Positions 6,514 through 39,928 of a DNA stretch of 64,000 bases are shown one piece after another. Both the position numbers and the translations under genes were made by a program. The stretch is from positions 47,985,665 through 48,049,664 of the forward strand of contig OX419757.1 in NCBI GenBank assembly GCA_948567375.1. The letters are read 5' to 3'. Source of the DNA: Lunularia cruciata (Eukaryota; Streptophyta; Marchantiopsida; Lunulariales; Lunulariaceae). Numbering within the stretch: the first letter of the stretch is position 1; each line of letters opens with the position of its first letter. The notes under the pieces were generated by a model, which worked only from the letters and a program-made list of their open reading frames with translations, was not told the origin of the DNA and did not search any database.

Positions 6514-9500
6514 TATTACAACCCATTAAATATCACTTTTGCGGTAATCATGTAAGTAAAGTTCATTCCCGCAAAGATACTGGTCAGGAATGTCCAAATA
6601 CAAAGCAAATAGTAACAATCTCAGTTCTTCTTGGTTGCATCTTTAACCTCTCAGGTAGCAACTACACCCAAAAGAGAGTAACAAGCACTTACTCGCAATC
6701 TCGTCACAAATTGGCACTCACTAATCACAACTTCATCAAATACTATCCAAAAAATTCTTGATTGTAATGATTTAGATTCTCCCAAGGATGGTTACTTCAC
6801 TAAAAAACAACTTCTGCCTCAGAATTGTGTTCCACCCCTCCACTAAAGGCACAACTTCCTCAATCAAAATTGCTTCACATCAACATTGTGATGCACTCAC
6901 AATTGCATAACACTACCAACACTACAATTCTTCTCATATTTTTCAAGGCATTGCTCAAATTGCACCTCACTCAAGATCAAACACATAGAATGAAGATCAA
7001 GGCTATAGAATCCAACATCCAAAAAAACACATTGACTTGCACTTCAGAATTCTCCAAACATTCATAATTGCAGAAACACAAAGTTGATACTCAAAACTAA
7101 GCTCAAACAATAAGCAGTGAAAGTACTTTGCTTTATCTATCTTCAAAAATTATGAATATTGAACAACATAACACTATGAATGCCCCTTGTAAATAATAGA
7201 GCAATTGATAGTTGCTAACAACTATACTGTTCTACAACAACTCTACAAACTTGTAGATCCAAAATGATAATGCACCTCTTCATATCTAAAAATTATTACT
7301 ACTCCAATCCGATGTCTACTTCTTCTTTGGCTTCCAAACCTGATGACACTCCTATTACTTCTCCTTCTTTGGGTCTATCTTCAACAACCAAATCTCTCAC
7401 TTTTTCTACTACTTCTTCACTATGAACTACAATTGAGGTCATGGGTAACCTTTCTATCTCTTTATCTCCCAACCACTCCTCTCTAATGTCTTGGAGGACA
7501 ACTCTAAAGACACCTATACTCCTACCCTCTTACTTTGGACTTCTTATCTTCATGCACACTACTCCTAAGTCTCTCTAACTCTGAGTTCACTAAATCTAAT
7601 CTGAGACTTACATTGTTTCCTACCTCCAACATCTTTCTATCTACTCTTTCCCTTAAACGAATCAGAAGAGTGTTCATATCTAGATCTTTTGCTCTCCTCT
7701 TCCGAGTTTCTTGCACTATCAATTTCAATTTGTGCAGTCTTGCTTCCTCCAACCTTCCTTAGACTCCATGCTCAACATGGCTTGCAATTTCCAACAACTT
7801 CTCTTATTGTCTGATGCATACCCACAAGATCATTCTGCCTTTAACTCTTCTTGGTACATCTTCAACTCATACTCGTACTCAGCAACAAGCATCTTCTTCT
7901 CCTCTGCATACTGAGAACTTTGTAGCTCAGCACTTCTTACCAATCTCTCAATCTTTCTTCCTCTTGGTGTTGGATCGACAACTCTCTCTGCCATACTTGA
8001 TCCTTTCCTGCTGCACTCTTCTTTAGGCTCTCTAACTCTTGCTCTATCACCATTTTCACATGAATACTCTTGATGAAAGCTTCATTGACCTCCTCTTTCA
8101 TCTTTGTCAGCAATATCATTTGCTCCTTCAACTCTTTGGCTTGACAATGCATCTCTTTTCCTCTCTTCTCAAAACTCTATTGCAAATTCTCTAACATCTT
8201 CTTCTTCAAGACTACATCCACCGGAAGCTCCTCAACTTTGTCTTCTCTTTGGGTTACACTTTCCTGCAATCCCTTCACTTTGTCTAGCAGATACTTCACC
8301 ACCTACAACTCATTCTTCACCTTCATACAATCTTGCGGGATTACCTTCTACTGCATCTTCAACAACTCCAACAATGTAGTCACAATCTGCATTAAATATT
8401 CTACTCTCCCAAAGCTCTTTTCATCTTCAGCTCCATCTTTGTACTTGGTTTCTTCCACTAGTGCCTTCTCTCAAAGTCTTGATCTTCATACTTTCAGCGG
8501 TATTGCTTCCGAGCTTCCTTTTTCCTTACTGGCTGAACTCGATTGTGTAGGGTCTTCCATTGTTGATTTCTTGTCTTTGCCTCCCTTTTAGTCTTCCTTC
8601 TTTGGCTCTACATCCATCTCCTCCATGGCCAATTCTAAGCAAGGATTTTCTCTTCCCTCCATACGGTCAATTGCCACATGAAATGCTTCATCTTCTTCCA
8701 CCTCAGCCGATTGCTGAACTTCCTCTTCATTATCACTCTCACTTCTGGATTCCTTACTGTGTAGTGTGAGCTCCACTTCTTCTGAGTCTCCTCTTCTTGA
8801 CTCTATCTCTCCTTTAGACTCAGTCTCCAAAGTCTCCTCCTTCACCGCCTTCTTACCTTGCAGAGTAGGTCTTTGGGTATTCTGTCGTGGCTGAGGCAAC
8901 ACTACATCTTTGGGTTTAGTCCGCTTCTTTGTGTTTGGACTCCTTCCTTCCACCCACTCTCTCTATTCCATTCTGGTAAAGTATCATTGTTGGCTCACAG
9001 GTGTGACATGTAGTGCTGTTCCTCTTCATCTGCTTCTTGTTGTAGATCAAGATGGGAATATGACACTACGTGATGCCTCTCCTCCGCTGTCAAAAAATTC
9101 AATCCAAAGTAGACGTGTGCTACAAATAGTGCAAAGTAATGTGGAGGCAAATTGGTTCTCCAATTGACAATCATCTGCCTTGTTTGCTAGTAGAAGCACT
9201 TTGCCCAATTCACCTTCACTCTTGCAAAAATCTGGGAGAAGAAGACTACCTACTACATGTTCACATATGTCATTCATTTGGGTTTGAACATGGCTATTAT
9301 CACTCCTACAATGCTTCATTTAATCAGGTCCCAATAGGACTCCACTTTGTAACCATTGGTAGTACACAAGGTGAAGAAAAAATTTCTGATTTCCGCAGTC
9401 TCCTCTGCAGCATCACACTTTTGATAGAAGGTGATCCCAATTGCCTCTCCTACTTCCTTCTCCAATACTAATCTCCAATCTGACTCAGTCCATCAAGCTA

Positions 9501-10269
9501 GATTTCCTCTCTCCCTTTGACTTCAAGGTCTTCCTCACAATTACTGGCAGCTATCTCTGCCATGACTCCTGGGAAATTGAAATTCCAATTCCATGCTAGA
9601 AATGTAATCCAAAGTCTATTCAAGAACTCAATCCTTGCTATGACATCTAACCTCCGAATTGCAAAACTCCTCACTGCAACTGTGTTCTTAGCCTTCTTTG
9701 CCATGATTTGCTCTCTAGTTCTTTGGCACTTAAAAAACTATCCCCTCTTCTGGATGTGACACTCTAACCCCTTTTGGACTTCAAAGAATTTCACTCTCAA
9801 TTGGCTTCTTGACACGCATTATTGTCGGATGACTACTCAAAGGAACAAGATATCTATTTGACATATTTGATTTCCCCTATACAATTGCAATTTTATATTA
9901 CCCCAAAGTGCAGTCATTCTTCAATCAATTTCAAATTGACTCCTACTTCTTCTGCATGTTGGTTTCTTGTCACTATCAAGACCTTCTCTTGCCTCTACCA
10001 TTTCTTGAAGTGTACTTTCTTGCCATGTAGAAAGGTTGTTACACCATCTTCATATCGGCCTTCACTTCCCGGTTCAAAGATGCCTTTCTTTGGACTTGTC
10101 TCTTTGTAACCCCATCCGAGTACTTCCAGTTCTTGACTCCAAGTCTACTTCTTTGGGTTTACTCCAAAGACACACCTGTCCATTCTTTCCTTTGTAATTT
10201 AGCTTTCTTACTCATTTCTTCTTCAAAACTTTACCAAAATAGAAGAAAACAAGAATTGTGGGTACCACA
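6514..10269 (-). repeat. Y 3' LTR (about 3.76 kb)
   Basis: On the minus strand it begins TGTGGTACCCACA (10269) and ends near GGGTTGTAATA (6514). It aligns with the solo copy at 28724-32491 (TGTGGTGCCCACA...GGTTGTCACA) and with the split 5' LTR. The purine tract at 10270-10283 immediately precedes it. Confidence 0.82.
7522..9704 (-). pseudogene. LTR-encoded ORF, decayed copy in Y 3' LTR
   Basis: Minus-strand fragments at 9704-9498, 9319-9047, 8953-8588, 8152-7937 and 7752-7522 correspond in order to the single long frame of the solo LTR copy (29510-32077). The N-terminal block 'AIRRLDVIARIE' and 'ITFLAWNWN' is followed by an acidic region and then coiled-coil segments (for example 'LIVQETRKRRAKD'). 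Several phase changes show frameshifts. The function is unknown. See the solo copy for the fuller description. Confidence 0.65.
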
Positions 10270-10283
10270 TACCCCCTCCTTGA
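10270..10283 (-). promoter_or_regulatory. Polypurine tract of element Y
   Basis: The minus strand reads AAGGAGGGGGTA directly before TGTGGTACCC. That is the expected position and composition of the plus-strand DNA priming site of an LTR retrotransposon. It is the main reason for calling 6514-10269 an LTR. Confidence 0.8.
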
Positions 10284-10361: not shown

Positions 10362-11249
10362 CTACCCGTTTACTTGAGTAACAAAAGGATTTCCTTCCAG
10401 GTCTGCAAGTTGAATAGAGCCATTGGCATATATGTGCACAACACGATATGGTCTCATCCACCTTAAATGTAGTTTGCTCAGAAAAAATATTTGGTGATTG
10501 TCATATAACAACACCAAGTCACCCTCCTGAACAGCCACATGCTTGAATTTCTTGTTGTGCCTGACTTTCCTTTGTTCTTGCACTTCCTATGTGGTTTGCA
10601 TTGAATCATCCCTTTTCTCTTCTAACCACATCAGTTGATGGATCCAAAGATCTTGACTTTCTTCCTCCGACAATCGTTCCTCACAAAGAATCTAATATGA
10701 CAATACTTCAAATTCAATTGGTAGAATGGGATGCAACCCATATGTTAGGATATATGGAGTTTGGTTGGTTGTAATCTTTTCAGTCATTTTGTATGCCCAC
10801 AAAGCTCTAGATAACTTTGTGTCCCAATCATAGGCGTAATTGACTATCACCTTCTTCAAAATTTTACACAATAATCCATTGGCCTTCTCTAATAGTCCAT
10901 TTGCTTTTAGATTATAGGGAGTTGTCTTCCAATGTTTAATCTAGAAATACTTGGTTAATGCTTCTACCATGGAGTTCAAAAAATGGGTTCCCCAATCATT
11001 GACGAATTCCAAAGGACACCCATAACATGAAATGATGTTTTGGAAGAAAAATTATATGACTATTTCTGCATCATCTCTTTGTGTTGCTTCTGCTTCTACC
11101 ATCTTGGTAGCATAATAAGTGCATACCAAGATGTATCTCTTCCTCGTGACTTGGGTCACTGGTTGAATTGGACCTACAAAATCAATACCCAATTTCTCAA
11201 ATAGAACCAATGGCAAAATTGGTCTCAAAGGCCACTGGGAAGTAGCCAT
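10362..11249 (-). pseudogene. Y integrase core and C-terminal part (decayed)
   Basis: Frame 11249-11052 carries the start of the integrase catalytic core: 'FEKLGIDFVGPI' contains the first catalytic Asp (D of GIDFVGP), followed by 'YILVCTYYATKMVEA'. Frame 10583-10362 carries the C-terminal basic/beta domain ('QEGDLVLLYD', 'RPYRVVHI'). About 470 bp between them are interrupted by stops and frameshifts. Integrase inserts the element's cDNA. This one cannot be functional. The frame ends about 80 bp before the polypurine tract, as expected for pol. No chromodomain is seen. Confidence 0.78.
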
Positions 11250-11282
11250 CAGTTTTCCTATTCTTTAATAGGCATCACAACT

Positions 11283-11945
11283 TCAAATATGGGCATAAGT
11301 GTCTTTATACATCATAGGCCACCAATACCCTGCTGAAAGGATTTTCTTTACAATATTCTGTAGGGCATAGTGTCCTCCCGATGCTTTAGAGTGTAAGGAC
11401 TCAATGACTCCTCCAACTTTGCATGCCTCCAAACATCTACAAAGTACTTTGTCTTCCACCATCTTAAATAAAATGTTGTGTTTTAGTTGGTACGGTCCCA
11501 TCTTCCTGAGGAAGACTGCACTCTGCTCCGGGTCCAACCTCTCAAGACAATGACAAGTATGCAGATAGTGATATTTGGCCATATACCTTGTACTTTGCAT
11601 AGCCATTAAATGATATAGCTCTTCATCAAGAAACCAATCATCAACTTCCAAGTCTTGGTCTTGAGTTTCTAACCTAGATAGGAGGTCTGCATTTGAATGC
11701 AAAGCTCCCTTCCTTACTTGTACAATGTATGTGAATTCTTGTAACAACAAGATCCATCTTGCAATTTGCTTGAACAAATTTGCCTTCTTGACCAAATGTT
11801 GCAATGCATAATGATTAACATAGAAGACAAACTCGTATCCCAATAGGTAGTGGTAAAACTTCTTGCAGGCATAAACCATTCCGAGTGCTTTTCTTTTAGT
11901 CATCAAATAGTTCTTTTTTTGAAAGTGATAATTGTTGGTTGGCAT
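11283..11945 (-). pseudogene. Y RNase H C-terminal part and integrase zinc-binding domain
   Basis: A 220-codon open frame. The first part has the Ty3/gypsy RNase H features 'KRKALGMVYACKKFYHYLLG', '.VNHYALQHLV' and 'HSNADLLSRLE', the last containing the catalytic-site Asp before LSR. It runs into the integrase N-terminal zinc finger region ('HSKASGGHYA...AGYWWPMMYKD', two His). RNase H degrades the RNA strand during reverse transcription. The typical 'TDH' of the family reads 'VNHY', so a key Asp appears lost. Confidence 0.8.
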
Positions 11946-12111
11946 AATAAATTGGGTAGTCCTTCTTCTTCTCGTCCTTCTAACTTAAGATGACTCCGAT
12001 TGCCATGGATGAAGTATCCACATACACATGAAAAGGGGCATCCTAATTTGGTGCCCTCATAACTGGTGCTTCAACCAATTTCTTCTTCAATACTTGGAAA
12101 GCTTCTTCTTG

Positions 12112-12908
12112 TTATGCTTCCCACAAGTAGTCTTTGGACTTCTTCAAAAGTTTTGTAAGGGGTGCAGCAAGCACCACATAGTTTGATACAAAGCATCTAT
12201 AGTATCTGACATGTCCCAAGAATGCTCTCGGCTCCTGGATTTTTTTAGGAGATTCCAAAGTTGAGATAAATTTTACCTTCTCAAAATCAACTTCAATACC
12301 TTGGCTTGACACTTGATGCCACAGAAGAATTCCTTCCTTCATTGCAAAGAAACATTTCTCCGCATTTCTCCGGGTGTAATGACAAACCTGAAAAATGACA
12401 CCTTTCAAAAGTTTAGGGAAGGTAATCTAAATGTACTTCTCTTTGCCCAAACACACAAAAATCATCAATTAAGACTTCCACAGATTTGCACAAAAAATCC
12501 TTGAAGATTGCATTCATCATCCATTGGAAAGTAGTGGGAGCATTACACAACCTGAAGGGCATTTGATTTTAAGAAAAAGTTCCCCAATTGGTAGTGAATG
12601 TAGTTTTATCCTTATCTTCTTCTTGGATGGAAACTTGATTATACCTTAAAAATCCATCAAAAAAATTGTTGCAAGGATGACTAGCTACTTGGTCCAAAAT
12701 TGTAATAGTAAAAGGCAAGGGATGAGATCCTTCCTTGTGATTGCATTCAAATTTTGAAAATCTTTGCACACTCGCATCTTCCTAGTTTTATGCTTTGGTA
12801 CAATGACAATGGGTGAGACCCACTCACTGCTTAAGACAAGAAAAATTATTGTGGCCCCTAGGTACTTGTCAATTTCATCTTTGACCAAGAGCGAGTACTT
12901 TGGGTTCA
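12112..12908 (-). pseudogene. Y reverse transcriptase (decayed)
   Basis: Minus-strand fragments give the RT order: 'VKDEIDKYL', 'SSEWVSPIVIVPK', 'MRVCKDFQNLNAITRKD' (fingers), then a frame with 'FLRYNQVSI' and 'KTTFTTNWGTF' (palm), then 12408-12112 with 'GIEVDFEKVKFI...PRAFLGHVRYYRCFV' (thumb/connection). They lie in different phases, and the segment that should hold the F(I/V)DD box is damaged. The enzyme copies element RNA to cDNA. The sequence is closest in style to family E. Confidence 0.78.
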
Positions 12909-13387
12909 GGTGGTATTGTCTTTGCCAAACCGGAATTGCACCTTCAACTAGATCAATCCGGTGTTCTCCAAATTCTCATGGAATACCCGGCATTTGATCA
13001 ATAGACCAGACAAATACATCATGGAATTCTATATATAGTGCAATGTATCCTGCCAACTCCTCCAAAGTGATTGTCTTTGAAATTTTCAAAATTTTCCTTT
13101 AGTCAACAACATCTTGATAGTCATTGAGGTTAATGACTCCTTCAACATGACTGACTCGGCAAAACCCGAGTCAAATTGCAGTCAAACCCTCTTCCTCCAA
13201 GTCATTTTCACCCAAAGAAATGTTGTATGGGTCTTTGTTTTCAACATCTACCTTGTAGCATTCCAAGTAGTTGACTTGGACTTTGTCTTCAGAGTCTCTT
13301 GAACACGGAGACAATGAATCTTTGGATTCATCTTTGTCTTTTGACAAAGTTGTTTCCCAAAGTGGGGAACCTTTGTTTAACTCACCG

Positions 13388-13924
13388 TCACCAGCTTCTG
13401 ATCTTTGGATGGGATGTCCTTGAACCTTGGCTTTTGCTAGTGCTAACCAATCCACAATAACTTGAGTGTTGTACAACCAAGGACTTCAGATCAAGAGTGG
13501 ATAACCAGTTTTGGTCATTGGTCGCAACACAATGTAATTTAACTTGAAGGGATCTCCTCCATTGATTGTGGTAATATTTGATAGCATCCTGAAGGCCGTC
13601 TCTTGGTTTGATCTGCAAATTTTAGAATTTGGGGTGTTGGTTCAAACGTCATATATCCCAATCAATGTGCAATGTCTTCTATCATGACATTCACACCCTA
13701 CCCCAAATCAATGAGTAGGATGTGATCATGCAGCCTACAATCTCCATGTCAACTTCAAGAGATCCCAAATCTTCTTGTTCAATCCAATAAATGGCAGGCA
13801 AGTCTTTCTTGGTCATCGTCCTTACTTTCTTGAGGGCTACACTCAGCTGCTTCTTGTACAACTTGTTGTCCTTCCACAATTGCTTAAATGTGACATTAGC
13901 ACTTGTAGATGCCAAATCGGCCAC
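13388..13924 (-). pseudogene. Y protease region (decayed)
   Basis: Around 13640-13720 (minus strand) an aspartic-protease-like site is visible in one frame: 'LIDLG', a stop, then 'GVNVM'. The usual element motif is LIDSGS.VNVM, so one Ser is changed and one position is a stop. Flanking frames 13618-13388 and 13924-13691 give no other recognised domain. Element proteases process the Gag-Pol polyprotein. The position between the gag side (beyond Z) and RT is as expected. Confidence 0.55.
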
Positions 13925-14219
13925 AATATCATATTAAGGGACTCCTCCCAACTTCATCTTCTTCACCTTTTTCTTTGGGTTTGAAGTCTCTCCTTGTTCA
14001 AATTGGACTTTAGGGTGCTTGAAGACAGTGATTGGAGTACTGGCGGTCTTAACCCAATGTTCTTTGGGTTGGCCAAACTTGGCTTGGATCAAATCCTTCA
14101 CTTTGGATCTAATATCCGCCAGAAAAATGGGAGGCTTTATATCCTCTTCCAAACTCATCTCCCAAGTTCTGAGTATTGTTTCCTTGATTTCTTTTTGCAA
14201 AGATTTAGCTTTAGCTTCT

Positions 14220-14224
14220 GCTAG
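14220..14224. repeat. Target-site duplication of Z, left copy (GCTAG)
   Basis: GCTAG abuts the TG end at 14225. The partner is at 19855-19859. Confidence 0.93.
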
Positions 14225-14324
14225 TGTAAAAGACCAAAACCAAGGAGAGAAATAGGAGAATGGAACCTCACATTGGGACACTTGAATGAGGGAAAACTCC
14301 AAATGCCTAGCATGAGCTTTGACT

Positions 14325-14340
14325 TTGGTATTTATAGATA
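14325..14340 (-). promoter_or_regulatory. TATA box candidate of Z 3' LTR
   Basis: The minus strand reads TATCTATAAATACC. The heat-shock-element array begins about 15-20 bp upstream of it. The identical arrangement occurs in the other LTR near 19540. Confidence 0.7.
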
Positions 14341-14353
14341 GCATACAAGACCC

Positions 14354-14563
14354 ATGAAGCTTCTCAAGAAGCTTCCTTGAGCCGCTTTCTTGGAGTGCAA
14401 GCCAAGTTAACCAGGAAGCTTCTCAAGAAGCTTCCTTCTAGAAGCCGCCTACTTGGAGTGCAAGCTAAGCTAGTTAGAAGCTTCTAGAAGCTTCCTTCTA
14501 GAAGCTACCTGCTTGGGACGTAAGTTAACTTCCCAAGAAGCTTCTTAGATACTTCTAGAATAT
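14354..14563 (-). promoter_or_regulatory. Array of heat-shock-element-like motifs, Z 3' LTR
   Basis: Four clusters of alternating GAA and TTC pentamers occur: 14354-14376 (GAAGCTTCTCAAGAAGCTTC), 14414-14456, 14474-14505 (AGAAGCTTCTAGAAGCTTCC) and 14530-14563. The spacing nGAAnnTTCnnGAAnnTTCn is the binding-site pattern of heat-shock factors. All clusters lie upstream of the TATA candidate in the element's transcription direction. Heat responsiveness is inference. Confidence 0.7.
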
Positions 14564-14635
14564 TCAAGGCTATTTTGTCTTATTCTCTACTTCGTAAGCC
14601 CGACTAACTTCATCACTAAACTCCATATTGTTACA

Positions 14636-14650
14636 TATTCCCCCGCTGCT
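14636..14650 (-). promoter_or_regulatory. Polypurine tract of Z
   Basis: The minus strand reads AGCAGCGGGGGAATA immediately before TGTAACAATA of the 3' LTR. Confidence 0.82.
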
Positions 14651-14731
14651 AGTTGGTGACGTCCTCATCGCCAGTGAAGCTTCAAATTCCTTGATGGCCA
14701 TATGTGCATTTTGGAGGTGGGAAAGAGGTTC

Positions 14732-16176
14732 CTATGTGGCATCATGAAGGGGATACCCTTTCCAAAGGACCTTGTACTTTGTATGTTGGTGACGGCCTCG
14801 TTGAATGTGACAACGTGCAAGGATACGATCAACTTCATACTCCTCATGATCATTGATAGGGATAGGCAGAGGAAGAGGTTGGACTTGAGAGGAAAAGGAA
14901 GAGGGGTTAGGAACAAAGGGTTTCAACTTGGAAACATGAAAGACAGGATGGATACGCATGTGACAAGGCAAGGCAAGTTGATAAGCAACAGGAGAGACAA
15001 TGTGGGTGATATCAAAGGGTCTTATCCAATTAGGAGCAAGTTTATGAACTTGGGTATCAAGTGGGAGAGGGAGGTTACTAGATGAGAGCATGACTTTATT
15101 GCCAACTTCAAAGGTGAGATCACGACGATGGTGGTCCGCATATTGTTTTTGGCGATTTTGAGCAACAAGAAGGTGAGACTTGGCTTGTTGGAGAGATTGG
15201 GATATAGTGGTCAAGAATGTGGAAGTATGAGGAACTTGAGAAGGAGGGGGAGCAAGAAGAGAATCTGGAACAAGTGGATCTTGGCCAAAATTGAGAAAGA
15301 AGGGAGAAAATCCGGTGCTTTCTTGTTTGGAATTGTTGTAGGAAATTCTGTAGCTGCAAGACATTCATCCCAGTTGGTATGGTGGACATTGACAAAGGCC
15401 CGCAACATATCCTCCAATGTACAATTGGCGCATTCGGTTTGTCCATCAGTTTGAGGATGATAGGCCGTGGACAAAGCAAGCTTGGTGCCGAGTATTTGGA
15501 AGAGTGCTTGCCAAAACTTCCCGATAAATTGAGGATCATGGTCGGAGATGAGTACACGTGACATCCCATGATGCTTGAAGACATTGTCAAAGTAGATTTG
15601 CGCTAAGGTTGGAGCATCCACGGTATCACAGGTTGGTGCCAAGTGGATTTACGTACTAAGCTTATCCATAAACACCACGATTACAGTGTGTCCTTGTTTT
15701 GTCTTTGGCAAGGATGTGATGAGATCCAAGCTCACATGCTCCCAACGAGCAGATGGAATGGCGAGTGGTTGAAGGAGTCCACTTGGCTTCTGGTTGCTGG
15801 CCTTGTTCCATTGGCAACTCTCACATGATCAGACAAAGTCTTGAACATCTCGTGTCATGTTGGGCCACCATCATTGGCGTTGGAGGGTGCCCAAGGTCTT
15901 GTCCACTCCCATGTGGCTAGCTATTGGTAAATCATGGGCTTCTTGAAGACGCACAAGTCGAAGATCACCTTTGGCTGGAACATAGATCTGGTCTGCATGG
16001 AATAAAACGTCTTCCTTGAAGGAGAAGGTGTTGTACTCCTTATTGCATGCTGTCAGACGACCGTGTACCATTTGGAAGAAGGGATCTTGTTGTAGAGCTG
16101 ATTGAAACTCATTATGGACCTTAGGGTCAATGGACACCGTTGTAATTGCCGCCGTGATGAGAGGAAGATCCTTCAA
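14732..16176 (-). pseudogene. Z integrase with C-terminal chromodomain (frameshifted)
   Basis: Three minus-strand frames cover it. 16176-15871 has the N-terminal zinc region ('HMGVDKTLGTLQR'). 15642-15211 has the catalytic core ('DHDPQFIGKFWQALF', 'STAYHPQTDGQTE', the classic D and 'HPQTDGQTE' signature). 15364-14732 has the core end ('STGFSPFFLNFGQDP'), the beta domain ('VGNKVMLSSSNL...LAPNWIRPFDI'), and from about residue 172 a chromodomain ('EEYEVDRILARC', 'TKYKVLWKGYP'). In this position chromodomains guide integration to chromatin marks. The frame ends at a stop exactly where the conserved Trp of 'DATWEP' is expected (TGG to TAG), so the last dozen or so residues are cut off. Confidence 0.9.
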
Positions 16177-16185
16177 ATCAGGTCG

Positions 16186-16670
16186 TCATGATAGAGCATT
16201 GAGGATGACATAGAACCGACCTGGTTTGTACTCAAGTTTGATGACAAAAAATTGGAGTTGCTCTTCCCATCGATGATGCCGACTCTTCATGTGCTCCAAG
16301 TGCAACAATGGCTTGTGATCAATTCGCATGATCACTTGTTTCCCCAAGAGATAATGCCTCCATACCTTGGTGGCATATACCATTGCAAGTTGTTCCCGAT
16401 CTCAAGTAGAGTATTTCTTTCAGCTGTATTTAGTCGGCGAGACACAAAGGCAATAGGATGTAGTCCATCTGGAAATTCTTGTTGCAACACAACTCCAATT
16501 GCAAAGTTAGAAGCATCAAAATCAACCACACAAGGTAGTTGAGGATCATATGGTTGAAGAATAGGTCTTGAAGACACCATATGCTTTAACTTCTGGAATG
16601 CTTCTTCATGCTTGGAGGTCCATTGGAAGCTTGAGTTCTTTCCCAAGAGGTCAGTCAATGGTGCAGCCAC
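16186..16670 (-). pseudogene. Z RNase H
   Basis: Frames 16670-16332 and 16383-16186 overlap in different phases. Visible motifs are 'LPCVVDFDASNFAIGVVLQQ' (first catalytic Asp in the 'VDFDAS' strand), 'PIAFVSRRLN', 'ERNTLLEI' and 'MRIDHKPLLHL'. These are the connection and RNase H domains of Ty3/gypsy. A frameshift near 16350-16383 breaks it. It lies directly between RT and IN. Confidence 0.88.
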
Positions 16671-16879
16671 GTGAGCATAATAGTGGATGAACCGTTAGTA
16701 AAAACTGGCCAATCCATTGAATGCTTGTACTTCTATAGCATCCTTTGAGGTAGGGCAATTAGTAATGGCCTTGATCTCTCTTCTTCTATCTTGATCCCCT
16801 CTGATGAGATCTTATGACCCAAGAAGGTAACCTCCTTTTGCCAAAAAGCACACTTTGACTTCTTGCAGTAAAATTTCCA

Positions 16880-17692: not shown

Positions 17693-17889
17693 GGTTGCCT
17701 TCTTGGCAAACTTCCCATCTTGGGACTCATCTCCCTTCCAGATTCACTCTTTGGCTACCTTCTTGACAAACTTCTCATCTTGGGACTGACTATTCTTAGG
17801 TGTCTTACTCAGAGGTGCCAGACAACCTAATCGGAAATTCCTACCTTGATGTTGTACTTGAATTTGGCATCGGGTCAATCAAATAAGGT

Positions 17890-18237: not shown

Positions 18238-18239
18238 GC

Positions 18240-19200: not shown

Positions 19201-19416
19201 ATTGATTAACACATAGATACAACACGTCCACCTTTCTCCATAAGTTACAATTGGAAGTATCAAGGGTTCTTCTGACACGATGATCATATGTAGAAAATCC
19301 TGCCTAAAGCGGTGATGAATTGTGTGAAACGATGCTTTGGTAATATTTGGACATGAAAGTCCCAATGGTTTGGCGGAAGTGGATTTGGTAGTCCATAAAT
19401 TCCATCCATCCCATTC

Positions 19417-24445: not shown

Positions 24446-24493
24446 TTTACCCTCGGACTAACTTTTCACTTTGTCTTCAAAGTGAAGGTCTCT

Positions 24494-25540: not shown

Positions 25541-25574
25541 GTGTCCTCCACAACTAAACCTTCATGAAACTCCT

Positions 25575-27549: not shown

Positions 27550-27564
27550 GTACCCTTTGTGCCA

Positions 27565-27960
27565 TCAATCAGTTGTGTGTGCTGCTCTCAACCATGGCCT
27601 CCCAAGAAGTAAGTCATAGCTTGAATCCTTCACGACTTGGAAAATCATGAGATTTTGAACTCCCATAACTGAAACTACCACTTTATCCATCACTCCTACT
27701 AGTCCAACTTGTTGCTTGTTTGCAATGCTCACCACAAATGTTGAAGGTCTCGAGGGTATCATACCCAACTTCTTCATCAACCTTTCTTACATGACATTCA
27801 CTACTGATCCTCCATCAACAAGTGCATCCTTGATGTTGTGACCATTCACTCTCACATTAATCTTGGAGGCAAATTCACAAGCCTCCCATGGTGTTGGCTT
27901 GGCATCCACCACCCCCATTGATACTGGAGCTTTTGCCTTCTAGTTCCTCTTGCTCCTTGT
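27565..27960 (-). pseudogene. E2 protease region
   Basis: The minus strand encodes 'ALVDGGSVVNVM' (protease active site, Asp-Gly-Gly-Ser), then a stop, then 'MIPSRPSTFVVSIANKQQV' and 'YDLLLGRPWLRA', the conserved last strand of the domain. The counterpart in E3 reads 'VDGASAVNAM'. Confidence 0.82.
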
Positions 27961-27965
27961 AGAAC

Positions 27966-28556
27966 TCAAACCACCTCTAAACCATACTTGTAGCCTTGAG
28001 GAGGATGCACAACCTCCTTCACCACCAAATCACTCTCATCTCCTTCCAAACTCTCCTCCATAAAAATTGCACGCTCGATAGCTTCAACCTTGGAAGAAGG
28101 TTTCTCATATCTCACCTTGCTTCTAATTTGTGGTCTCAACCCTCTCACAAAATTCTTGGTGAACATGGCCTCTATGCCAATCATAGTAGTCTCCACCCTT
28201 CCTCTAGACTCTAACTTTTCCACTCTTTCCACATAGACTCTCACTTTCTCTCCATCTCCTTGTTTGAGAAAGGTAACCTCACTCATCAATCTCTCATTAC
28301 TCTCATCAGGAAAAAAGTTCTCAATGAGTGCTGAAGTCAAAGTCTCCCAAGACTCTTCATGCTTATCTCTCCTCTCTCACTTTTGGTATTTTGACTCATA
28401 CCATGTAAGTGCTGCATCCTCAAAGAAATCTAGTAATAATGAGGCCCACTCATTCTTCCTCCTCTCATATTTTCATATGCAAGCTCTCTTGAATTCTCTC
28501 ACAAAGGCCTCCACATCTTCTCCATCCTTGCCAAAGAAAATAGGAAGTTTCCCCAT
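27966..28556 (-). pseudogene. E2 gag, truncated by internal deletion
   Basis: It begins 'MGKLPIFFGKDGEDVE' and follows E3 gag through the capsid ('RKNEWASLL', 'AALTWYESKYQK', 'EVTFLKQGDGEKVRVYVERVEKL'). There are stops in the first third, and the stretch 28340-27966 is open. After 'GYKYG' it jumps straight to sequence that in E3 lies beyond the gag stop. The nucleocapsid half (about 735 bp, E3 42106-42841) is missing. Confidence 0.85.
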
Positions 28557-28718
28557 CTTGACCACTCACTATCTTTGTTTTCTCTCAATTTTTTTTCTTC
28601 TTTTTCTCATTTTCTTTCTCTCCCTCTATAACTAATAGAGTATATGCACAACTAACACCATTTGAGAATAATCCACTCTAGGGAACACAAAAGGTTTAGG
28701 TTGCTCCAAGATTTCTAA

Positions 28719-28723
28719 AACAA
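28719..28723. repeat. Target-site duplication of solo LTR X2, left (AACAA)
   Basis: The partner is at 32492-32496. In E3 the uninterrupted sequence reads 'ttgatgttg..atatagaaatcttgg' at the same place. Confidence 0.9.
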
Positions 28724-31700
28724 TGTGACAACCCGGCAAATATCACTTTTGCGGTAATCGGGTAAGTAAAGTTTGTTCCCATAGAGATACAAGTCAGAAT
28801 TGGTCAAATACAAAGCAAAGTAACAATTTAGTTCTTCTTGGTTGCGTCTTTAATCTCTCAGGTAGAAACCACACCCAGAAGAGAGTAACAAGCACTGATT
28901 TGCAGTCTTGTCACAAATTCACACTTCTTAATCACAACTCCATCAAATCTTTCCAAACAATCTTGATTGTGATGATTCAGGCTCTCCCAAAAACAGCACT
29001 TCATTGCAAAACGACTTTACCTCAGAATTGTGTTCCACCCCTCCATTGAAGGCACAACTTCCTTGATCAAAATTGCTTCACATCAACTTTGCACTACACT
29101 CACAAATGCAAAATACTACCAACACTACAATTCCTCCCAGATCTGTCAAGGCATTGTTTCGATAGCACTTCACTCAGGATCAAACACACAAAATGAAGAT
29201 CAAGGAATCCAACATCCAACAAGCACACTGACTTGCACTTTGAATTTCTCCACACACTCACAAACACAATTGCAAAGTTGATACTTGGAATCAAGCTCAA
29301 GCGACGAGCACTGCTTCACAGCACTTCGCTTTATCTATTCTCAAAAATTATGAGCATTGAACAGCATTTGACTGCAAATGCCACTCTTAAATAGTGAAGC
29401 AATTGACAGTTCTAACAACTATACCATTCTAAAAAAACTCTTCTAACCTGCAGATCCGAAATGACAATGCACTTCTTCATATTTGCCTCTTCAAATCTCA
29501 AATCTGTTACTAATCCGATCTGATGTCTACTTTGTCCTCGGCTTCCAAACCCGAACCCGAAGTAATCTTACTTCCTACTATCTTTTCCTCGGGTTTCAGA
29601 TCTTCTACTTCTTCTACCAGATCTAGCAATTCTCTTTCCTGATCTGAAATATCACTAATGGGTAATCTATCTAACTCCTTATCTCCCGACCCACTCTTCT
29701 CTAATGTCTCTGATAGTAACTCCAAAGATATTTGGACTCCTATGTTATCTACTTTGGGTTTTGCTCTAACATCCTTCCGAAGTTTTTCTAACTCTATTTT
29801 CACTAAGTCTAATCTAATTGAAATGTTATCCTCTACCTCTAAAACCTTTCTGTCTACACGAGTTCTTAGTTTTATTAACAAGGCATTCATCTCTGTGTCT
29901 TTCTCTTGTCTACGCCTCGTCTCCTGCACCAACAGCTTTAACTCGTGTAGTCGTGCTTCTTCAATTCAAACGATGGCTTATGTACTTAACATCACGTTCA
30001 CCTTGAGAACTATCTCCTTCAATGGCTCCAATCTTGTCTTCCTTTCTTGTTCCCGATCTGCAAGCCATTCCTCTTGGTACATTGCCAACTCTGCCTTGAA
30101 CTCGGCTTTCACCGTCTCCTTCTCCTTTTGTACAACTTTTTCTTCCTGATTACGAAGTAACTCTCGTAATCTTTCTTCTTCTCTATACCGCACAGCCAAC
30201 TCTCTTTGCCATAGTTGCTTCTTCTCCTCCATACTCTCCATCACTCTATTGAGCTCTTGATCATTTGCTGCTACCCTCGCCATAGCATGGATTACTTTTA
30301 CTCTTGAATCAGCAAACTGCTGCTTCAAGATTTCGAATTTAGCTACTTGTCTCTCTCTTGCTATGTCACTTTTCTTCACAAGATCCTCTCAATAATTTAC
30401 TTCTCTCTTCAGGTCTTCAATTACCTGACTTCTCTCTACTGCTTCCGCTTGCAGTACTTCTCTCTCCTCCTCACCTCGGGTTATACTTCTCTTCAACTCC
30501 AAGTTCTCTTCTTCTAATCTCGATAAGACCTGCAAACCAGTCTTCACCTCTGGACAAGTCAACTGCATCTCCTTCTTCTTGTACTCCAATTTCACCAACA
30601 GAGGACACACCACCTCTTGCGGGTAATCGACTCCATCATTGGCAACTACTTCCACCCGCAGAGTGGTCTCTCTTCTCTCCTTGTGTTCTCCTGATACTCG
30701 CCTTCTTCTCTGGAGTCTTCATATCTGGATTGATGCTTCACTGCCCGAGCTTTCTTCTGCCTCTTTCTTCACATTACTCGGCCCCATTTCACACTTTGCC
30801 TTACGTCTCGAGCGCACCTCTTGCTGCACTGCGATCTTCCTTTCCTTGGGCACCGGAACTTTGTCTTCCAACGGTGAGTTGTCTTCAGCCTCCAACTCGG
30901 CTTGCACTTCTTCTTCTTCTTCATTAGCCGCTGGCACTAATGTCATCTCTCCTCCTTCTTCACTATCACTGCTCGTATCTCCACTCTACAATGTCAGCTC
31001 AGGTTCCTCCTCATGTTCCGAGTCCTTCGTCTTGAGCTCGGCCTCGCCTTCTGAGTCTTCATCTTCCGACTCAATTACCACCATACTTTGCCTTGGGTTA
31101 CTTCTCTACATCTTTCGAGGTTTCTTGCTGTCTTCGGCTTCTCCTTGCCAACTCCTCTTCTTTGTCGGGGTACTCATTACGACCTCCACGTTCTTTCCTG
31201 TCTTTGCGTAGTAGTTGTTGGTGCTCTGGATTTGGAGAATGTACTGTTGCTCCTCGACATCCACCTCCTTTCGCACATCAGGATGGAAGTGCGACACCAT
31301 CCAAGTCTGCTCCACCAAGGTCAATAGATTGAGCCCGAGGTAGAAGTGTGCTTCAAACGGCACAATGAAGTGTGGAGGTGACTTATCCCGCAAATTCCAC
31401 ATCATCTGCCTCGTTCTCCCGTGAAAACACCTTGCCCAATTGATAGGTCCTCCTGCAAACAACTTATGGAAGAACACCGCTTGGTGTTTCATCACATAAG
31501 TTGTTCTCTCTGGCTTCAAGATTGCCATGAGAGCACTCACGATCCCTCTCTTCACTGGATCCTTGTAACTCTCAACTTTGTACCCATTCTTCGTTCTTTG
31601 TGACAAGAAGGCATCTCTCACCTCCTACGTCTCTTGGGCTATCTCTCCTTTCTCCAAGAACGTGGCTCCCTGCTCCGAGCCTGCCTCCTTCCCGAGTACG

Positions 31701-32491
31701 AGTCTCCAATCCGACTCTGTCCAACAAGCCGGATTTCCTCTCTTCCCTTCTTCCTTGGGTCCATCGAGACACTTACTCTCGATGATTTTTGTCATGAATC
31801 TTGGAAAACTCACGTTCCAGTTCCATGCCAAAAATGTGATCCGAAGTCCGCTCAAGACTTCAATCCTTGCTATCACATCTAATCTCCGAATCGCATGATT
31901 TCTCACTTCAAATTCGGAGTTCTTCTTCCCTCCTCCCATCTCTTCTACTTTCTCACTTTCTCTCAATTTCACTCTCGCAACTTTGCCCTTGCGCACTAAC
32001 ACGAGTCCAACTCTATTCCTCTTTCCCCAATCACCTGCAAGACGACTCCTCAACGGCAAAGGAAAATTGCTTGACATTTCGTCGTTGCAGTTTTGATTTT
32101 TATAGAGTTGAGTTTCTTTGTCTTGCGTCTCTTCGAGTTCCTACCAAGAAATCACACCTCCAACATGCACCTGTCACTGTCAATCAACCTTCGTGCGTAT
32201 GAGCCACCAGTTTTCAAACAGCCTCTTCTTGAATTTCTTGCCCCAATAAAAGGTTGTTAGATTTTCTTCGCCTCAGGTTGAGCTCTCCCCAATCCAAAGA
32301 CAATTTACTTTGGGTTGTATGCTGACAGGACATTTCCGAGTACTTCGCCTTATGACCCAAAGTCACTTTACTTTGGGTTTCATCCTGAAGACTCCTTTCT
32401 TGGCTTTCTTTGGCCATACAGGCGCAATTCGACTTCTCTATACAACTCCTTCTCCTTTATTTTGAAAAAAACAAAAAATGTGGGCACCACA
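28724..32491 (-). repeat. Solo LTR of family Y (X2), 3768 bp, in E2 leader
   Basis: The plus strand begins TGTGACAACCCGG and ends GGGCACCACA. It is flanked by AACAA on both sides and interrupts E2 leader sequence that is continuous in E3 (near 41330). No internal region or second LTR accompanies it, so it is a solo LTR formed by LTR-LTR recombination. A TATA-like CTATAAAAAT lies on the minus strand near 32096-32105. Confidence 0.88.
29510..32077 (-). pseudogene. Long ORF inside the Y-family LTR (about 855 codons, nonsense-interrupted)
   Basis: Minus-strand frames 32077-31625, 31621-31106, 30946-30719, 30655-30389, 30379-29978 and 29932-29510 all share one phase. The 2.57-kb frame is broken only by stops, mostly TAG or TGA of the kind left by C-to-T change, with no frameshift. 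Features: a basic N-terminus; a globular region of about 300 residues ('RRLDVIARIEVLSGLRITFL', 'WTESDWRLVLG', 'INWARCFHGRTRQMMWNLRD', 'PFEAHFYLGLNLLTLVEQTW'); an acidic, Ser-rich linker; then about 400 residues of Glu/Lys/Arg/Leu-rich coiled coil. I do not recognise the family. It is encoded in the same sense as gag-pol. Decayed versions occupy 7522-9704 and 34871-36448. Confidence 0.75.
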
Positions 32492-32496
32492 AACAA
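32492..32496. repeat. Target-site duplication of solo LTR X2, right (AACAA)
   Basis: Directly after CACCACA. The partner is 28719-28723. Confidence 0.9.
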
Positions 32497-33880
32497 CATC
32501 AAATCCTAGAGTACATATTAATCTAACTCTCATGGATAGTTTATTCATAAGTTGAAAGATTACCTCCATCACTAATCTTGAGAAGTAGCTGATGAAGGTG
32601 GTAGTATTTCTGTAGCTGTACTTAGAATCTCTCCAAGATCCTTCATTAAAGTCTCCAAAAGTGCTTTTACTCCACTACACTCATGTTCTTTTGGAAGTCC
32701 TTCCACTCCACAAACCTCACACAACTCCTTGGTTTTAGATCTTCTCCCTCCCAATCTTGGTGAAGAATGTCCAACATGCAAACCCAAGTCAAGTAAGCCT
32801 CTCCTTTCCCTCAATCTCTTGCCCTCAAAGTTCAATGGACATGAACTTACCTTATGTCTCTTCTCTCTACATAGAAAGCACTAGACTCACTCTTTCCTTT
32901 TAAGTGGCGTAGGTTTTTGGATCCTTTCAACACTCTCTTCAAATTCTATTGTAAACTCTCTTTTCTTCAAATCCACACCTACAATCACCTCAAACCCTTT
33001 GGGAACCTCGCATAGTCTCAATTTCCACTCTTGATGACCCTCCATGTTCCCAAGATGAATGTGAACACTCAAACATGCTTTTTGTTGCTCTCAAACTCTT
33101 CATGCATGAGATCTCCACTCTGCAGAATTGACACTTCCTCACAATGTCACTCAAATCTCCCAACCAGTAAGTGACAGTCCTATGAAATTCTTCACACTTG
33201 ATCACACCTCTAGGGCATCCCTCATTGAAAAATTTCAGATCTTTTCATTGAGCTATTTGGCCTATACATCTTTCTATTCAGCACATATATCTCAGATTTG
33301 GTCTGAAAACCACCCCCCTTACTTCAACAACTGATAACTCCCTCCGCAAGATTGTTCTCTCTCTAATTTTTGTGGCAGCCCATAGGATACAATGCACTGA
33401 TTTTTCTTGGAAATTTTGAGAAAAATTTATTGAAAATTGAAGAAATGGCAGACTCTGTACAATTTTCCAAAGAGCATGCAGTTGTGAGAGCAGTTTACCC
33501 TATCAACTTTCAAAAATTCTAGCCCAGTGTGCATAGTAGCTCTCACAATAGTTTTAAGTGTGCTAACTGAAAGATAACCCAAGCTATCATGTGTAGAAAT
33601 TTCAAGTCCAGATCTTAAACTTGAGATTTTGCCCAAAATCACCTAAATCCCCAAAATCTGCAATCCACCTCACATAATCTCTCCAAATCCTCTCATGTGT
33701 ACAAGATGTACAAAATCACTTCAAAGACAGCATAATGAACTACAGGGTAAACAAATGGATGTTGGTTCTCTAACATAAGTTCAGCCCTCTCCTCTCCTAA
33801 TGTTCCCTCCAAGTGAGCTCTCATAGCCTCCTTCTGCCTTATGTAAAATTGAACGCGGAACATTATCTTGCCTTCTAGAG
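32497..33880 (-). other. E2 untranslated leader (5' part)
   Basis: The reverse complement aligns with E3 39950-41330, including 'ggatttggagagattgtgtgaggtgg' and the segment around 'gagttgtgtgaggtttgtggagtgg'. Short frames in it are not conserved as open frames between the two copies. Confidence 0.8.
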
Positions 33881-33904
33881 AGGTCTCGGCAATGAAACCA
33901 AAAA
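33881..33904 (-). promoter_or_regulatory. Primer-binding site of E2
   Basis: The minus strand reads TTTTTGGTTTCATTGCCGAGACC after the 5' LTR. It is related to the tRNA-Asp type (TGGCGCCGTTGCCGGG) with mismatches. Confidence 0.6.
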
Positions 33905-34595
33905 TGTGGGCCGGCATGTCTCTCACTCAGGATGAACCTCTAATGGATATTATGGTAGCGCACCATGGACTAAGAGGCAAGGAACCCCAACTCCATCATA
34001 CCTCTCCAAGGCTAACACTCCAAGACTCAAGACACTGCTCACTAGAGAACTCAATAAGAGAGAGATAGTTGCAAATGAAAAGGATGATTAGTACCTACTC
34101 ACTCCTTTTTTATATACTTATGATATATTTACGTACCAAGGTTACTAATTACCATAGTAACTCAAGCTACTAGACTAAAAGTCAAGTAAAGTCAAAAAGT
34201 AGAAAGGAATATCTATTCACATGGGCATATTCCACTAGCATGTGATCTTATCTTGACCCAACCACTAAATCAAGGATTCCTTCAAAAGGGTTATCCTTGG
34301 ACTATAGAAGAATCCAAAACAAAAAGGCTTACGGGCCCAAGAGTTGTTAACTCTTTCCTCAAAGCCAAACACCTAGGAATAATACCAAGTCAATACACTA
34401 GAACCCAAAATAGTGATGCTTATCTTTTCCACTTCCTCTAAAGTAAGGTCCCCTCTATCTTAGCTATGACTAACTTTAGCTAATCATGACTAATGTAGAA
34501 CCATCCTTTATCTCTATATAAATAATATCTCTCAAGTACTTGTAATACCAAGCTAAATATCACAATACCACACACTTGCACAAATGGGTGTTACA
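33905..34595 (-). repeat. E2 5' LTR
   Basis: 691 bp. The minus strand begins TGTAACACCC at 34595 and ends GGCCCACA. It is the partner of 23755-24445. Confidence 0.92.
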
Positions 34596-36727
34596 GTACA
34601 TCTTCAACTTGTCTTTGTACTCAACAACAAGCATCTTCTTCTCCTCCACATATTGAGAACTTTATAGCTTAGCACTTCTTACCAAGCCTCTCAATCTTTC
34701 TTCCTCTTGGTTTTAGATTGACAACTCTCTCTACCATGCTTGATCCTTTCCTGCAGCACTCTTCTTTAGGCTCTCTAACTCTTGCTCCATCACCGCTTTC
34801 ACATGAATACTCTCAATGCAAGCTTCATTGACCTTCTCTTTCATCTTTGTCAGCAATGTTGTCTACTCTTTCAACTCTTTGACTTGATGATGCATCTCTT
34901 TTCCCCTCTTCTTGAACTCTCTTGCAAATTCTGTAACGTCTTCTTCTTCAAGATTGCATCCATCCAAAGCTCCTCAACTTCTTCTTCTCTTTGGGTTACA
35001 CTTTCTTGCAGTCTCTTCACTTCATCTAGCAGATACTTCACCACCTGCAACTCATTCTTCACCTTCATACAATCTTGCAGGATGACCTCATGCTGCACCT
35101 TCAACAGCTCCAACAATGGAATCACGATCTGTGTTAAATATTGTACTCTCCCAAAGCTCTCTTCATCTTTAGCTCCATTTTCATACTTGATTTCTTCCAC
35201 CGGCGCCTTCTCCCAAAGTCTTGATCTTTGTACTTTCAATGGTATTGCTTCCAAGCTTCCTTCTTCCTTATGGCTGAACTTGGTCCTGCAAGATCTTCCA
35301 TTGTTGATTTCTTGTCTTTGCTTCCCTTCTGGTCTCCCTTCTTTGGCTCTGCATCCATCTCCTCCATGGCCAATTCTAAACAAGGATTATCTCATCCCTC
35401 CATACGGTCAATCACCGCATGGAATGCTTCATCTTTTTCCACTTTAGCCGATTGTTGAACTTCCTCTTCACCATCACTCTCACTTCCAAATTCCTCACTT
35501 TGTAGTGTGAGCTCCACTTCTTCGGAGCCTCCTCCTCTAGACTTTGTCTCTCCTTCAGACTTTGTTTCCAAAGTCTCCTCCTTCACCACCTTCTTACCTC
35601 ACAAAGTAAGTCTTTGGGTCTTCCGTTATGGCTGAGGCAACCCTACATCTTTGGGTTTAGTCTGCTTCTTTGTCTTTTGGACTTCTTCCTTCCACCCACT
35701 CTCTCTGTCCTATTTTGGTAAAGTGATCATCATTGGCTTATAGGTGTGACATGTAGTGCTGCTCCTCTTCATCCGCTTCTTGTCGTAGATCAGGATGGAA
35801 ATGTGACACAATGCAATGCCTCTCCTCTGCTGTTAGCAAATTTAATCCAAAGTAGAAGTGTGCTACAAACGGTGCAAAGTAATGTGGAGGAAAATTGGTT
35901 CTCCAATTGACGATCATCTACCTTGTTCTTTGGTGGAAGCACTTCACCCAGTTCACGTTCACTCCTACAAACATCTGGTGGAAGAAGACTACATGTTGCA
36001 TGTTCATGTATGTTGTTTTTTTGGGTTTGAACATGGCTATTATCACTCCTACAATGCTTCACTTAATTGGGTCCCAATAGGACTCCACTTTGTAACCATT
36101 GGTAGTACGTGGGGCAAAGAACAAATTTCTGATTTCCGTAGTCTCCTCTACAGCATCACACTTCCGATAGAAGGGGTACTTAATTGCCTTTCTTGCTTCC
36201 TTCCCCAATACTAACCTCTAATCCAACTCAATCCATTGAGCCGGATTTCTTGTCTTCTCCTTGACTTCAGGGCCTTCCTCATAATTACTGGCAGCTATCT
36301 CCACCATGACTCTTGGGAAACTAAAATTCCAATTCCATGGTAGAAATGTAATCCAAAGTCTATTCAAGACCTTGATCCTTGCTATGACATCTAACCTCCG
36401 AATTGCAAAACTCCTCATTGAGAGTGCATTTTTAGCCTTCTTTGCCATGATTTGCTCTCTAGTTCTTTGGCACTAAAAAACTATCCTCTCTCCTGGACGG
36501 GACACTCTAAACCCTTTTGGACTTCGGAAAATTTCACTCTCAATTGGCTTCTTGATGCACATTATTATAGGACTACTACTCAAAGGACCAAGATATCTAT
36601 TTGACATATTCGATTCCCCCCTACGCAATCACAATTTTTTATTACCTCAAAGTGCAATCATTCTTTAGTCAATTTCAAAATGGACTCCCACTTCTTCTAC
36701 GTCTTGGTTTCCTATCACTGTCAAAGT
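34596..36727 (-). repeat. Y 5' LTR, segment 2 (continuation after E2)
   Basis: It resumes 'gtacatcttcaact' where segment 1 stopped and parallels 7855-9990 of the 3' LTR to about 36727. The first 330 bp or so of the LTR (including the TGTGG end) are absent and unrelated sequence follows. Confidence 0.85.
34871..36448 (-). pseudogene. LTR-encoded ORF, decayed copy in Y 5' LTR
   Basis: Minus-strand frames 36448-36218 ('MAKKAKNALSMRSFAIRRLD'), 36062-35790, 35589-35392 (acidic) and 35383-34871 (170 codons, coiled coil) follow the order of the solo-LTR ORF. Phases differ, so frameshifts are present. The C-terminal end lies on the far side of E2 (23681-23445). The same strand and order are kept in all three copies. 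Confidence 0.68.
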
Positions 36728-39926: not shown

Positions 39927-39928
39927 TT

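What the first reader, a model, noticed from the sequence alone, without database searches (positions are those of the whole stretch)
6514..36727. Ty3/gypsy family whose LTR is about 3.77 kb and contains a long same-sense ORF
Seen: three copies of one 3.77-kb unit. One is preceded by a purine tract (10270-10283), one is followed by a tRNA-Asp-like site (22371-22387) and gag, and one stands alone with a 5-bp duplication. That makes the unit an LTR rather than a transposon. Each copy carries the same long coding-strand sequence: an unrecognised N-terminal domain, an acidic linker and a long coiled coil, on the gag-pol strand. Known: plant LTRs this long exist, but a conserved ORF of about 855 codons inside an LTR is unusual. 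Inference: it may be an extra structural or regulatory protein expressed from the LTR promoter, and it would be present twice in each full element.
Basis: partly seen in the sequence, partly recalled or inferred. Interest (0 to 1): 0.82.

Follow-up and report, generated by a model that had tools for sequence, protein, structure and literature searches.

The report
Protein gene inside a retrotransposon's LTR
A plant mobile element, probably from a liverwort, carries a long extra protein gene inside its end repeats, so a full element would hold two copies; the copies seen here are decayed, but the gene shows signs of past selection, and its job is unknown.

Summary
The unit is an LTR. Copy A (6514-10269) follows a purine tract; copy B (36724-34596 plus 23754-22395, split by a nested element) precedes a primer-binding-like site and gag; copy C (32491-28724) is a solo LTR with a TTGTT duplication. 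All are in gag-pol sense. C keeps one 855-codon frame (ATG 32077, stop 29512) with 7 in-frame stops; 0 of 2000 shuffles have so few. No copy is open. At those 7 codons A and B align with sense codons, and the final stop is shared. In the N-terminal domain third codon positions differ most between C and A/B (77,66,125; 73,64,127), while the A/B pair is flat (35,31,37): past purifying selection on a protein gene inside the LTR. The coiled-coil stretch shows this less clearly. TATAAA lies 33 and 27 nt before a shared ATG in A and C, not in B, hinting at an LTR promoter for the ORF. No homologue was found. A liverwort host is inferred from a neighbouring element. The genome could not be searched. 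Plant extra ORFs seen in the review read are internal; MMTV Sag is the closest LTR-borne parallel. New variant of a known kind.

The parts
6514..10269 (-). Copy A: 3' LTR of the outer Ty3/gypsy element (3756 nt)
10270..10283 (-). polypurine tract directly before LTR A
10365..14224 (-). outer element, pol pieces (RT, RNase H, integrase), broken
14225..19854 (-). nested chromovirus interrupting the internal region (LTRs 14225-14635 and 19432-19854)
19855..22307 (-). outer element, gag pieces, broken: zinc knuckle above the Pfam cut-off, Retrotrans_gag piece just below it (E 2e-4)
22371..22387 (-). primer-binding-like site, 7 nt after the end of LTR B
22395..23754 (-). Copy B, 3' part of the 5' LTR
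34596..36724 (-). Copy B, 5' part of the 5' LTR (first 290 nt missing relative to A)
23755..34595 (-). nested Ty3/gypsy element of another family (690-bp LTRs, 90% identical) that splits copy B
28724..32491 (-). Copy C: solo LTR, 3768 nt, TG...CA, TSD TTGTT at 28719-28723 and 32492-32496
29510..32077 (-). LTR ORF in copy C: 855 codons from ATG 32077 (809 from the start I think more likely, ATG 31939), 7 in-frame stops in one unbroken frame; the final stop aligns with a stop in A and B
31205..31939 (-). N-terminal conserved domain, copy C
35717..36448 (-). N-terminal conserved domain, copy B (51% aa identity to C over 245 columns)
8983..9704 (-). N-terminal conserved domain, copy A (48% and 53% identity in two pieces in different frames)
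32099..32104 (-). only TATAAA in LTR C (sense strand), 27 nt before ATG 32077
9892..9897 (-). only TATAAA in LTR A (sense strand), 33 nt before the homologous ATG; copy B has TAAAAA here
28724..29509 (-). 3' noncoding part of LTR C, 70-95% identical to A/B per 60-nt bin; inferred to hold poly(A) and U5 signals

Best explanation
A Ty3/gypsy family whose LTR is itself a gene cassette. Shown: a protein frame of 809-855 codons lies wholly within the LTR, in gag-pol sense, in a 5' LTR, a 3' LTR and a solo LTR; its N- and C-terminal parts bear the mark of purifying selection from before these insertions; all copies here are now broken. Inferred: a TATA box about 375-390 nt into the LTR starts transcription near nt 405-415. 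The protein begins at the second conserved ATG (C position 553), about 140-160 nt downstream. RNA ending in the LTR's conserved 3' noncoding part is the mRNA for the protein, while RNA reading past it into gag-pol is the genomic RNA. The protein (conserved N-terminal domain, basic patch seen by eye, acidic linker, partly heptad-periodic coiled coil) most likely acts as an oligomeric nuclear accessory factor for the element, in RNA handling or in countering silencing; this last step is the weakest.
For: LTR status: purine tract, primer-binding-like site and gag, solo LTR with TSD and unoccupied sister site. Coding: 7 stops versus 77 and 47 in the other sense frames and 0 of 2000 shuffles. The 7 stops align with sense codons in A and B and the final stop with stops. 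Protein identity to C 48-53% in the N-terminal domain and 44-68% in the last ~170 residues. Codon-position differences in the N-terminal domain 77,66,125 (A/C) and 73,64,127 (B/C), p 1.6e-5 and 1.9e-6; at the 158 codons identical in A and B 40,36,86, p 6e-7; A/B control 35,31,37, p 0.76; C-terminal stretch 51,34,67 and 52,35,64, p 0.005 and 0.015. Nei-Gojobori ratio in the N-terminal domain 0.21 and 0.17 in frame and 0.80-1.08 in the two shifted frames; neutral baselines by the same method: A/B 0.45, 3' noncoding part read as codons 0.48-0.71. TATAAA at corresponding places in A and C, shuffle frequency 0.009 and 0.003. Heptad periodicity in residues 500-640, 0 of 2000 shuffles.
Against: Only three copies, two of them taken to be one insertion. 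A and B share 5 stop codons, so that insertion may already have been defective (parallel mutation is possible). In LTR nt 1801-2412 (coil) third positions do not exceed first (A/C 107,74,104; B/C 110,73,110), and protein identity there is only 28-35%. Indel lengths between C and A/B in the ORF show no clear excess of multiples of 3 (A 10 of 30, B 11 of 25, counted). The A/B baseline itself varies by segment (0.31-0.67). Copy B has TAAAAA at the TATA place and its one TATAAA lies inside the ORF; one TATAAA per LTR is about what shuffles expect (1.02 and 0.46), only its place is notable, and the test was chosen after looking. One antisense frame has only 13 stops. The acidic linker is not recognisably conserved (best E 0.53). 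Heptad periodicity is not significant in residues 640-855. No RNA evidence and no homologue.
Confidence: 0.6

Rival explanations
1. U3 model: the LTR promoter lies in the conserved 3' part, the ORF sits in U3, and it is expressed from the 3' LTR as a late or subgenomic message, in the manner of MMTV Sag.
For: The 3' noncoding part is the best conserved stretch between C and A/B; [quoted passage not shown]
Against: No TATAAA in the 3' noncoding part of A, B or C; in A and C the only one lies before the ORF. Weak, since many promoters lack TATAAA.
Confidence: 0.25
2. Passenger: a captured host or foreign gene that hitch-hikes in the LTR without serving the element.
For: Gene transduction is known in plant LTR elements (PMC7264820, text parts 1-2 of 3); no viral or transposon homologue was found.
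Against: Selection between two deeply diverged LTR subfamilies is not expected of a passenger; no host homologue was found either (limited sensitivity).
Confidence: 0.12
3. The ORF was useful long ago but was already dead when these copies inserted, so it is a relic carried in large LTRs.
For: 5 codon columns are stops in both A and B; A and B share several indels against C that are not multiples of 3, although alignment there is poor.
Against: The 7 stops of C are not found in A or B, and C has an unbroken frame apart from them; 12 of 13 indels that separate A from B are 1-2 nt and private to one of them, as expected of decay after insertion.
Confidence: 0.2
4. The unit is a DNA transposon or other insertion, not an LTR.
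For: Copy C alone, with TSD, would fit.
Against: A abuts a purine tract and B a primer-binding-like site and gag around one gag-pol region, and C has TG...CA ends.
Confidence: 0.02

Closest known systems
MMTV LTR with the Sag ORF
   Same: a protein gene inside the LTR (U3 ORF: one passage of PMC9412291), hence twice per provirus
   Different: animal retrovirus; ORF in U3, with Sag expression from a U3 promoter in B cells (same passage). Here a plant Ty3/gypsy element, an 809-855 codon frame with a coiled-coil stretch, and a TATA motif upstream of the ORF in two of three copies
Retrosat2 / RIRE3 / RIRE8 / FRetro3 (rice), ORF0
   Same: LTRs of about 3 kb or more and an extra ORF upstream of gag-pol that is less conserved than gag-pol (passages of PMC3485330)
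   Different: the passages seen list ORF0 beside the LTRs and do not place it inside them; here the ORF is in the LTR and so also in the 3' LTR
Additional ORFs of plant LTR elements (env-like ORFs; Grande gene23, Retand, PvRetro13)
   Same: extra conserved proteins of unknown role, some nuclear or with an SMC domain (PMC7264820, text parts 1-2 of 3)
   Different: the review describes aORFs in the internal region, most often between pol and the 3' LTR; a search of its text found no 'in/inside/within the LTR'

Membership tests
Ty3/gypsy LTR retrotransposon (outer element) | two LTRs flanking PBS, gag, pol and PPT | tested here: met
   the 5' LTR lacks its first 290 nt and the PBS-tRNA match is unproven
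Ty3/gypsy LTR retrotransposon (outer element) | pol order RT - RNase H - integrase | tested here: met
   RT: piece 12975-12688 matches the RVT_1 ORF of the nested element (BLASTP 2e-21), piece 12568-12416 RVT_1 E 0.0028, under the cut-off. RNase H E 3.5e-12; H2C2 E 8.5e-5, under the cut-off, both in 11984-11283. Integrase core: piece 11264-11055 matches the rve ORF of the nested element (BLASTP 1e-11). Of the 5 pol pieces given to Pfam, 4 had no match
Ty3/gypsy LTR retrotransposon (outer element) | target-site duplication of the whole element | not testable with these tools
   LTR B is truncated at 36724
solo LTR (copy C) | TG...CA ends, TSD, no internal part, unoccupied site in a relative | tested here: met
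   the unoccupied site was compared by eye
element with an LTR-borne gene (MMTV-like layout) | protein ORF wholly inside the LTR, in sense | tested here: met
   all present copies are broken
element with an LTR-borne gene (MMTV-like layout) | ORF located in U3 | tested here: inconclusive
   the TATA position in A and C argues for R/U5; no RNA ends available
Retrosat2-type ORF0 | extra ORF in the internal region, between PBS and gag (internal placement recalled; the passages say only 'upstream' of gag-pol) | tested here: not met
   a frame starting at 22307, 64 nt after the PBS-like site, is taken as the start of gag by position only; the extra ORF is in the LTR
known protein domain family | match of the N-terminal domain to Pfam, NCBIfam or a PDB sequence | tested here: not met
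   the C-terminal part had only sub-cut-off NCBIfam matches (best E 0.014)

The most novel reading that the evidence does not exclude
The LTR is a self-contained gene (promoter, 809-codon ORF, terminator) of a land-plant retrotransposon: every element carries two copies, every solo LTR keeps one, and the protein is a new family acting in trans on the element's life cycle.
Probability: 0.37. Interest if true: 0.8.

Novelty: new variant of a known kind. Interest (0 to 1): 0.62.

Why it matters
LTRs are usually treated as regulatory DNA, and extra ORFs of plant elements are described in the internal region (PMC7264820). A selected protein gene inside an LTR could be missed that way, would persist and spread through solo LTRs, and could supply a trans-acting element protein without gag-pol. 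It also offers an explanation for some very long plant LTRs that can be tested in existing genomes.

Tried and rejected
Homologues of the N-terminal domain: Pfam (E up to 10), NCBIfam, PDB sequences, the protein database (a 277-aa piece whose length filter excludes full-length relatives, 809 aa with region 1-280; both E up to 1), viral contigs, prokaryote contigs: nothing. Controls: the same protein database returned 1003 proteins (120 listed) for a pol ORF of the window, the top two being named liverwort records, so it does hold liverwort element proteins; but it needs exact 5-residue words and my query is degenerate, so a remote relative can be missed. A pol ORF found nothing in viral contigs, so that collection says little. 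The structure model of the N-terminal domain had mean pLDDT 35.5, so no fold search was run. Rfam gave nothing over 6400-36800. A DNA-transposon reading was rejected (see rivals). The long + strand frame 34779-35447 is antisense to the ORF stretch of copy B and was not taken as a gene. Indel lengths as evidence for coding were dropped on recount (10 of 30 and 11 of 25 multiples of 3).

Literature: searches returned no paper; some searches were seen as listings (capped lists in 54 and 70). bear on ORFs within LTRs; the exact-phrase search returned one paper, on MMTV. Passages only: PMC3485330, PMC11302176, PMC4031123, PMC9412291, PMC5408684; of these PMC4031123, PMC11302176 and PMC5408684 showed no protein gene inside an LTR of the present kind in the passages seen. 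The library lacks most subscription papers, so 'not in print' is not claimed.
Full report
What is there. Self-comparison and end mapping resolve the region into nested elements, all read on the minus strand. The outer Ty3/gypsy element runs from LTR B (36724-34596, then 23754-22395) through a primer-binding-like site (22387-22371), broken gag and pol pieces, and a polypurine tract (10283-10270) to LTR A (10269-6514). LTR B is split by a second Ty3/gypsy element (23755-34595; 690-bp LTRs 90% identical), and the internal region by a chromovirus (14225-19854; RT, Tf2-1-like SH3 and chromodomain matches). Copy C (32491-28724) is a solo LTR of the outer family sitting inside the second element; the other copy of that element (39243-47060) shows the unoccupied site (by eye), and C is flanked by TTGTT on both sides.

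Coding content. In copy C one frame runs from ATG 32077 to a stop at 29512-29510, 855 codons, with 7 in-frame stops. Over the same stretch the other two sense frames have 77 and 47 stops and the antisense frames 35, 13 and 20; the best of three frames in 2000 dinucleotide shuffles averaged 45.1 and never fell below 28. Copy B keeps the frame for the N-terminal domain at 51% protein identity over 245 columns; copy A gives 48% and 53% in two pieces; the last ~170 residues match at 44-68%; the coil before them at 28-35%; the acidic linker is not recognisable by tblastn (best E 0.53). The 7 stops of C align with sense codons in both A and B, and the terminal stop aligns with a stop in both. Over the 809 gap-free codon columns, in C's frame, A and B have 16 and 15 stops, 5 at the same codon (upper bounds, because short stretches of A and B are frame-shifted), so the element that inserted may already have been damaged, or the same sites mutated twice. 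Indels against C are multiples of 3 in 10 of 30 (A) and 11 of 25 (B) cases (recounted), no better than chance, so I do not use them. No copy in the window is open.

Selection. A and B flank one gag-pol region and are taken as LTRs of one insertion (11.8% different, K2P 0.131, 79% transitions), so their differences should be neutral: by codon position in the N-terminal domain they are 35, 31, 37 (p 0.76). Against C the counts are 77, 66, 125 (A, 239 codons; p 1.6e-5) and 73, 64, 127 (B, 240 codons; p 1.9e-6); at the 158 codons identical in A and B, which removes most A- and B-specific decay, 40, 36, 86 (p 6e-7). The C-terminal stretch (LTR nt 2527-2978) gives 51, 34, 67 and 52, 35, 64 (p 0.005 and 0.015). 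In the linker (nt 1273-1800) the counts are 63, 85, 97 and 68, 80, 89, and in the coil (nt 1801-2412) 107, 74, 104 and 110, 73, 110: there the third position does not stand out, although second positions are lowest in the coil, and sites are near saturation. Nei-Gojobori ratios in the N-terminal domain are 0.21 and 0.17 in frame and 0.80-1.08 in shifted frames. Neutral sequence does not give 1 by this method, because of transition bias: the A/B pair gives 0.45 (0.31-0.67 by segment) and the 3' noncoding part read as codons 0.48-0.71; those are the baselines. Purifying selection acted on the N- and C-terminal parts of this frame before these copies inserted.

A module boundary. Synonymous sites between C and A/B are near saturation (pS 0.68-0.70 in the N-terminal domain), yet the 3' noncoding part of the LTR is 70-95% identical per 60-nt bin (25 of 26 bins from nt 3001 at 75% or more), against 53-78% in the seven bins before nt 2941; the rise to 81-84% falls in the bin 2941-3000, which holds the stop codon. 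Either the 3' part is strongly constrained or LTR modules were exchanged near the ORF end. I favour exchange (inference).

How it may work. The only TATAAA in LTR A (nt 373) and in LTR C (nt 388) lies 33 and 27 nt before a shared ATG (nt 406 and 415); shuffled leaders put one in that place with frequency 0.009 and 0.003. Against it: copy B has TAAAAA there and its one TATAAA lies inside the ORF; about one TATAAA per LTR is expected by chance (1.02 and 0.46); the test is post hoc. If real, transcription starts at about nt 405-415, the shared ATG is too near the start to be used, and translation begins at the second conserved ATG (C nt 553), where nearly gap-free protein similarity also begins; that gives 809 codons. 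The protein would then have a conserved N-terminal domain, a basic patch (by eye), an acidic linker (26% D+E) and a coiled coil; heptad periodicity is significant for residues 500-640 (0 of 2000) and 450-760 (8 of 2000) but not for 640-760 (388 of 2000) or 760-855 (856 of 2000). An accessory nuclear role is inference by analogy with extra ORFs of other plant elements (PMC7264820, text parts 1-2 of 3 and passages). The alternative, expression from U3 as for MMTV Sag (PMC9412291, one passage), is not excluded.

Host. A pol ORF of the neighbouring element (44006-45415) has its two best matches in Riccia sorocarpa (58% over 94%) and Marchantia paleacea (75% over 54%) among 1003 proteins, 120 listed. 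A liverwort is likely; this comes from the neighbour, not from the outer element itself.

Comparison with the known. The review of plant extra ORFs describes them in the internal region. Retrosat2-type elements have long LTRs and an extra ORF0 upstream of gag-pol, listed beside the LTRs (PMC3485330, passages). An exact-phrase search for ORFs in LTRs returned one paper, on MMTV. I therefore rate this a new variant of a known kind: an LTR retrotransposon with a once-selected gene inside its LTR. The library is partial, so prior description elsewhere is possible.

Limits. Three copies, two from one insertion; the own genome could not be reached in 11 calls; no RNA data; no homologue and no usable structure.

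Noticed in passing
39243-47060: A second copy of the nested Ty3/gypsy family, in opposite orientation, with about 94% identical LTRs; it holds the two longest open frames of the window (447 and 469 aa) and the unoccupied site for copy C.
   Followed up: partly
14225-19854: Nested chromovirus with short (about 410-420 bp) LTRs, an RT frame and a frame with SH3 and chromodomain matches, lying between the gag pieces and pol pieces of the outer element.
   Followed up: partly
28724-29551 versus copies A and B: Rise in LTR identity at the ORF end (53-78% per bin before, 81-84% in the bin with the stop, 70-95% after), suggesting module exchange between LTR subfamilies.
   Followed up: partly
58354-59148: A 264-aa minus-strand frame without a Pfam match at E 0.1; by eye it resembles the C-terminal part of a non-LTR element protein.
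   Followed up: no
1909-2443, 4323-4865, 51849-52391: Three diverged copies (70-76% identical) of an unassigned repeat of about 540 bp.
   Followed up: no
51576-52955, 57163-57809, 58238-59040: Direct and inverted copies (71-83% identical) of another unassigned repeat.
   Followed up: no
36724: LTR B lacks its first 290 nt here (relative to A); what replaced them was not determined.
   Followed up: no
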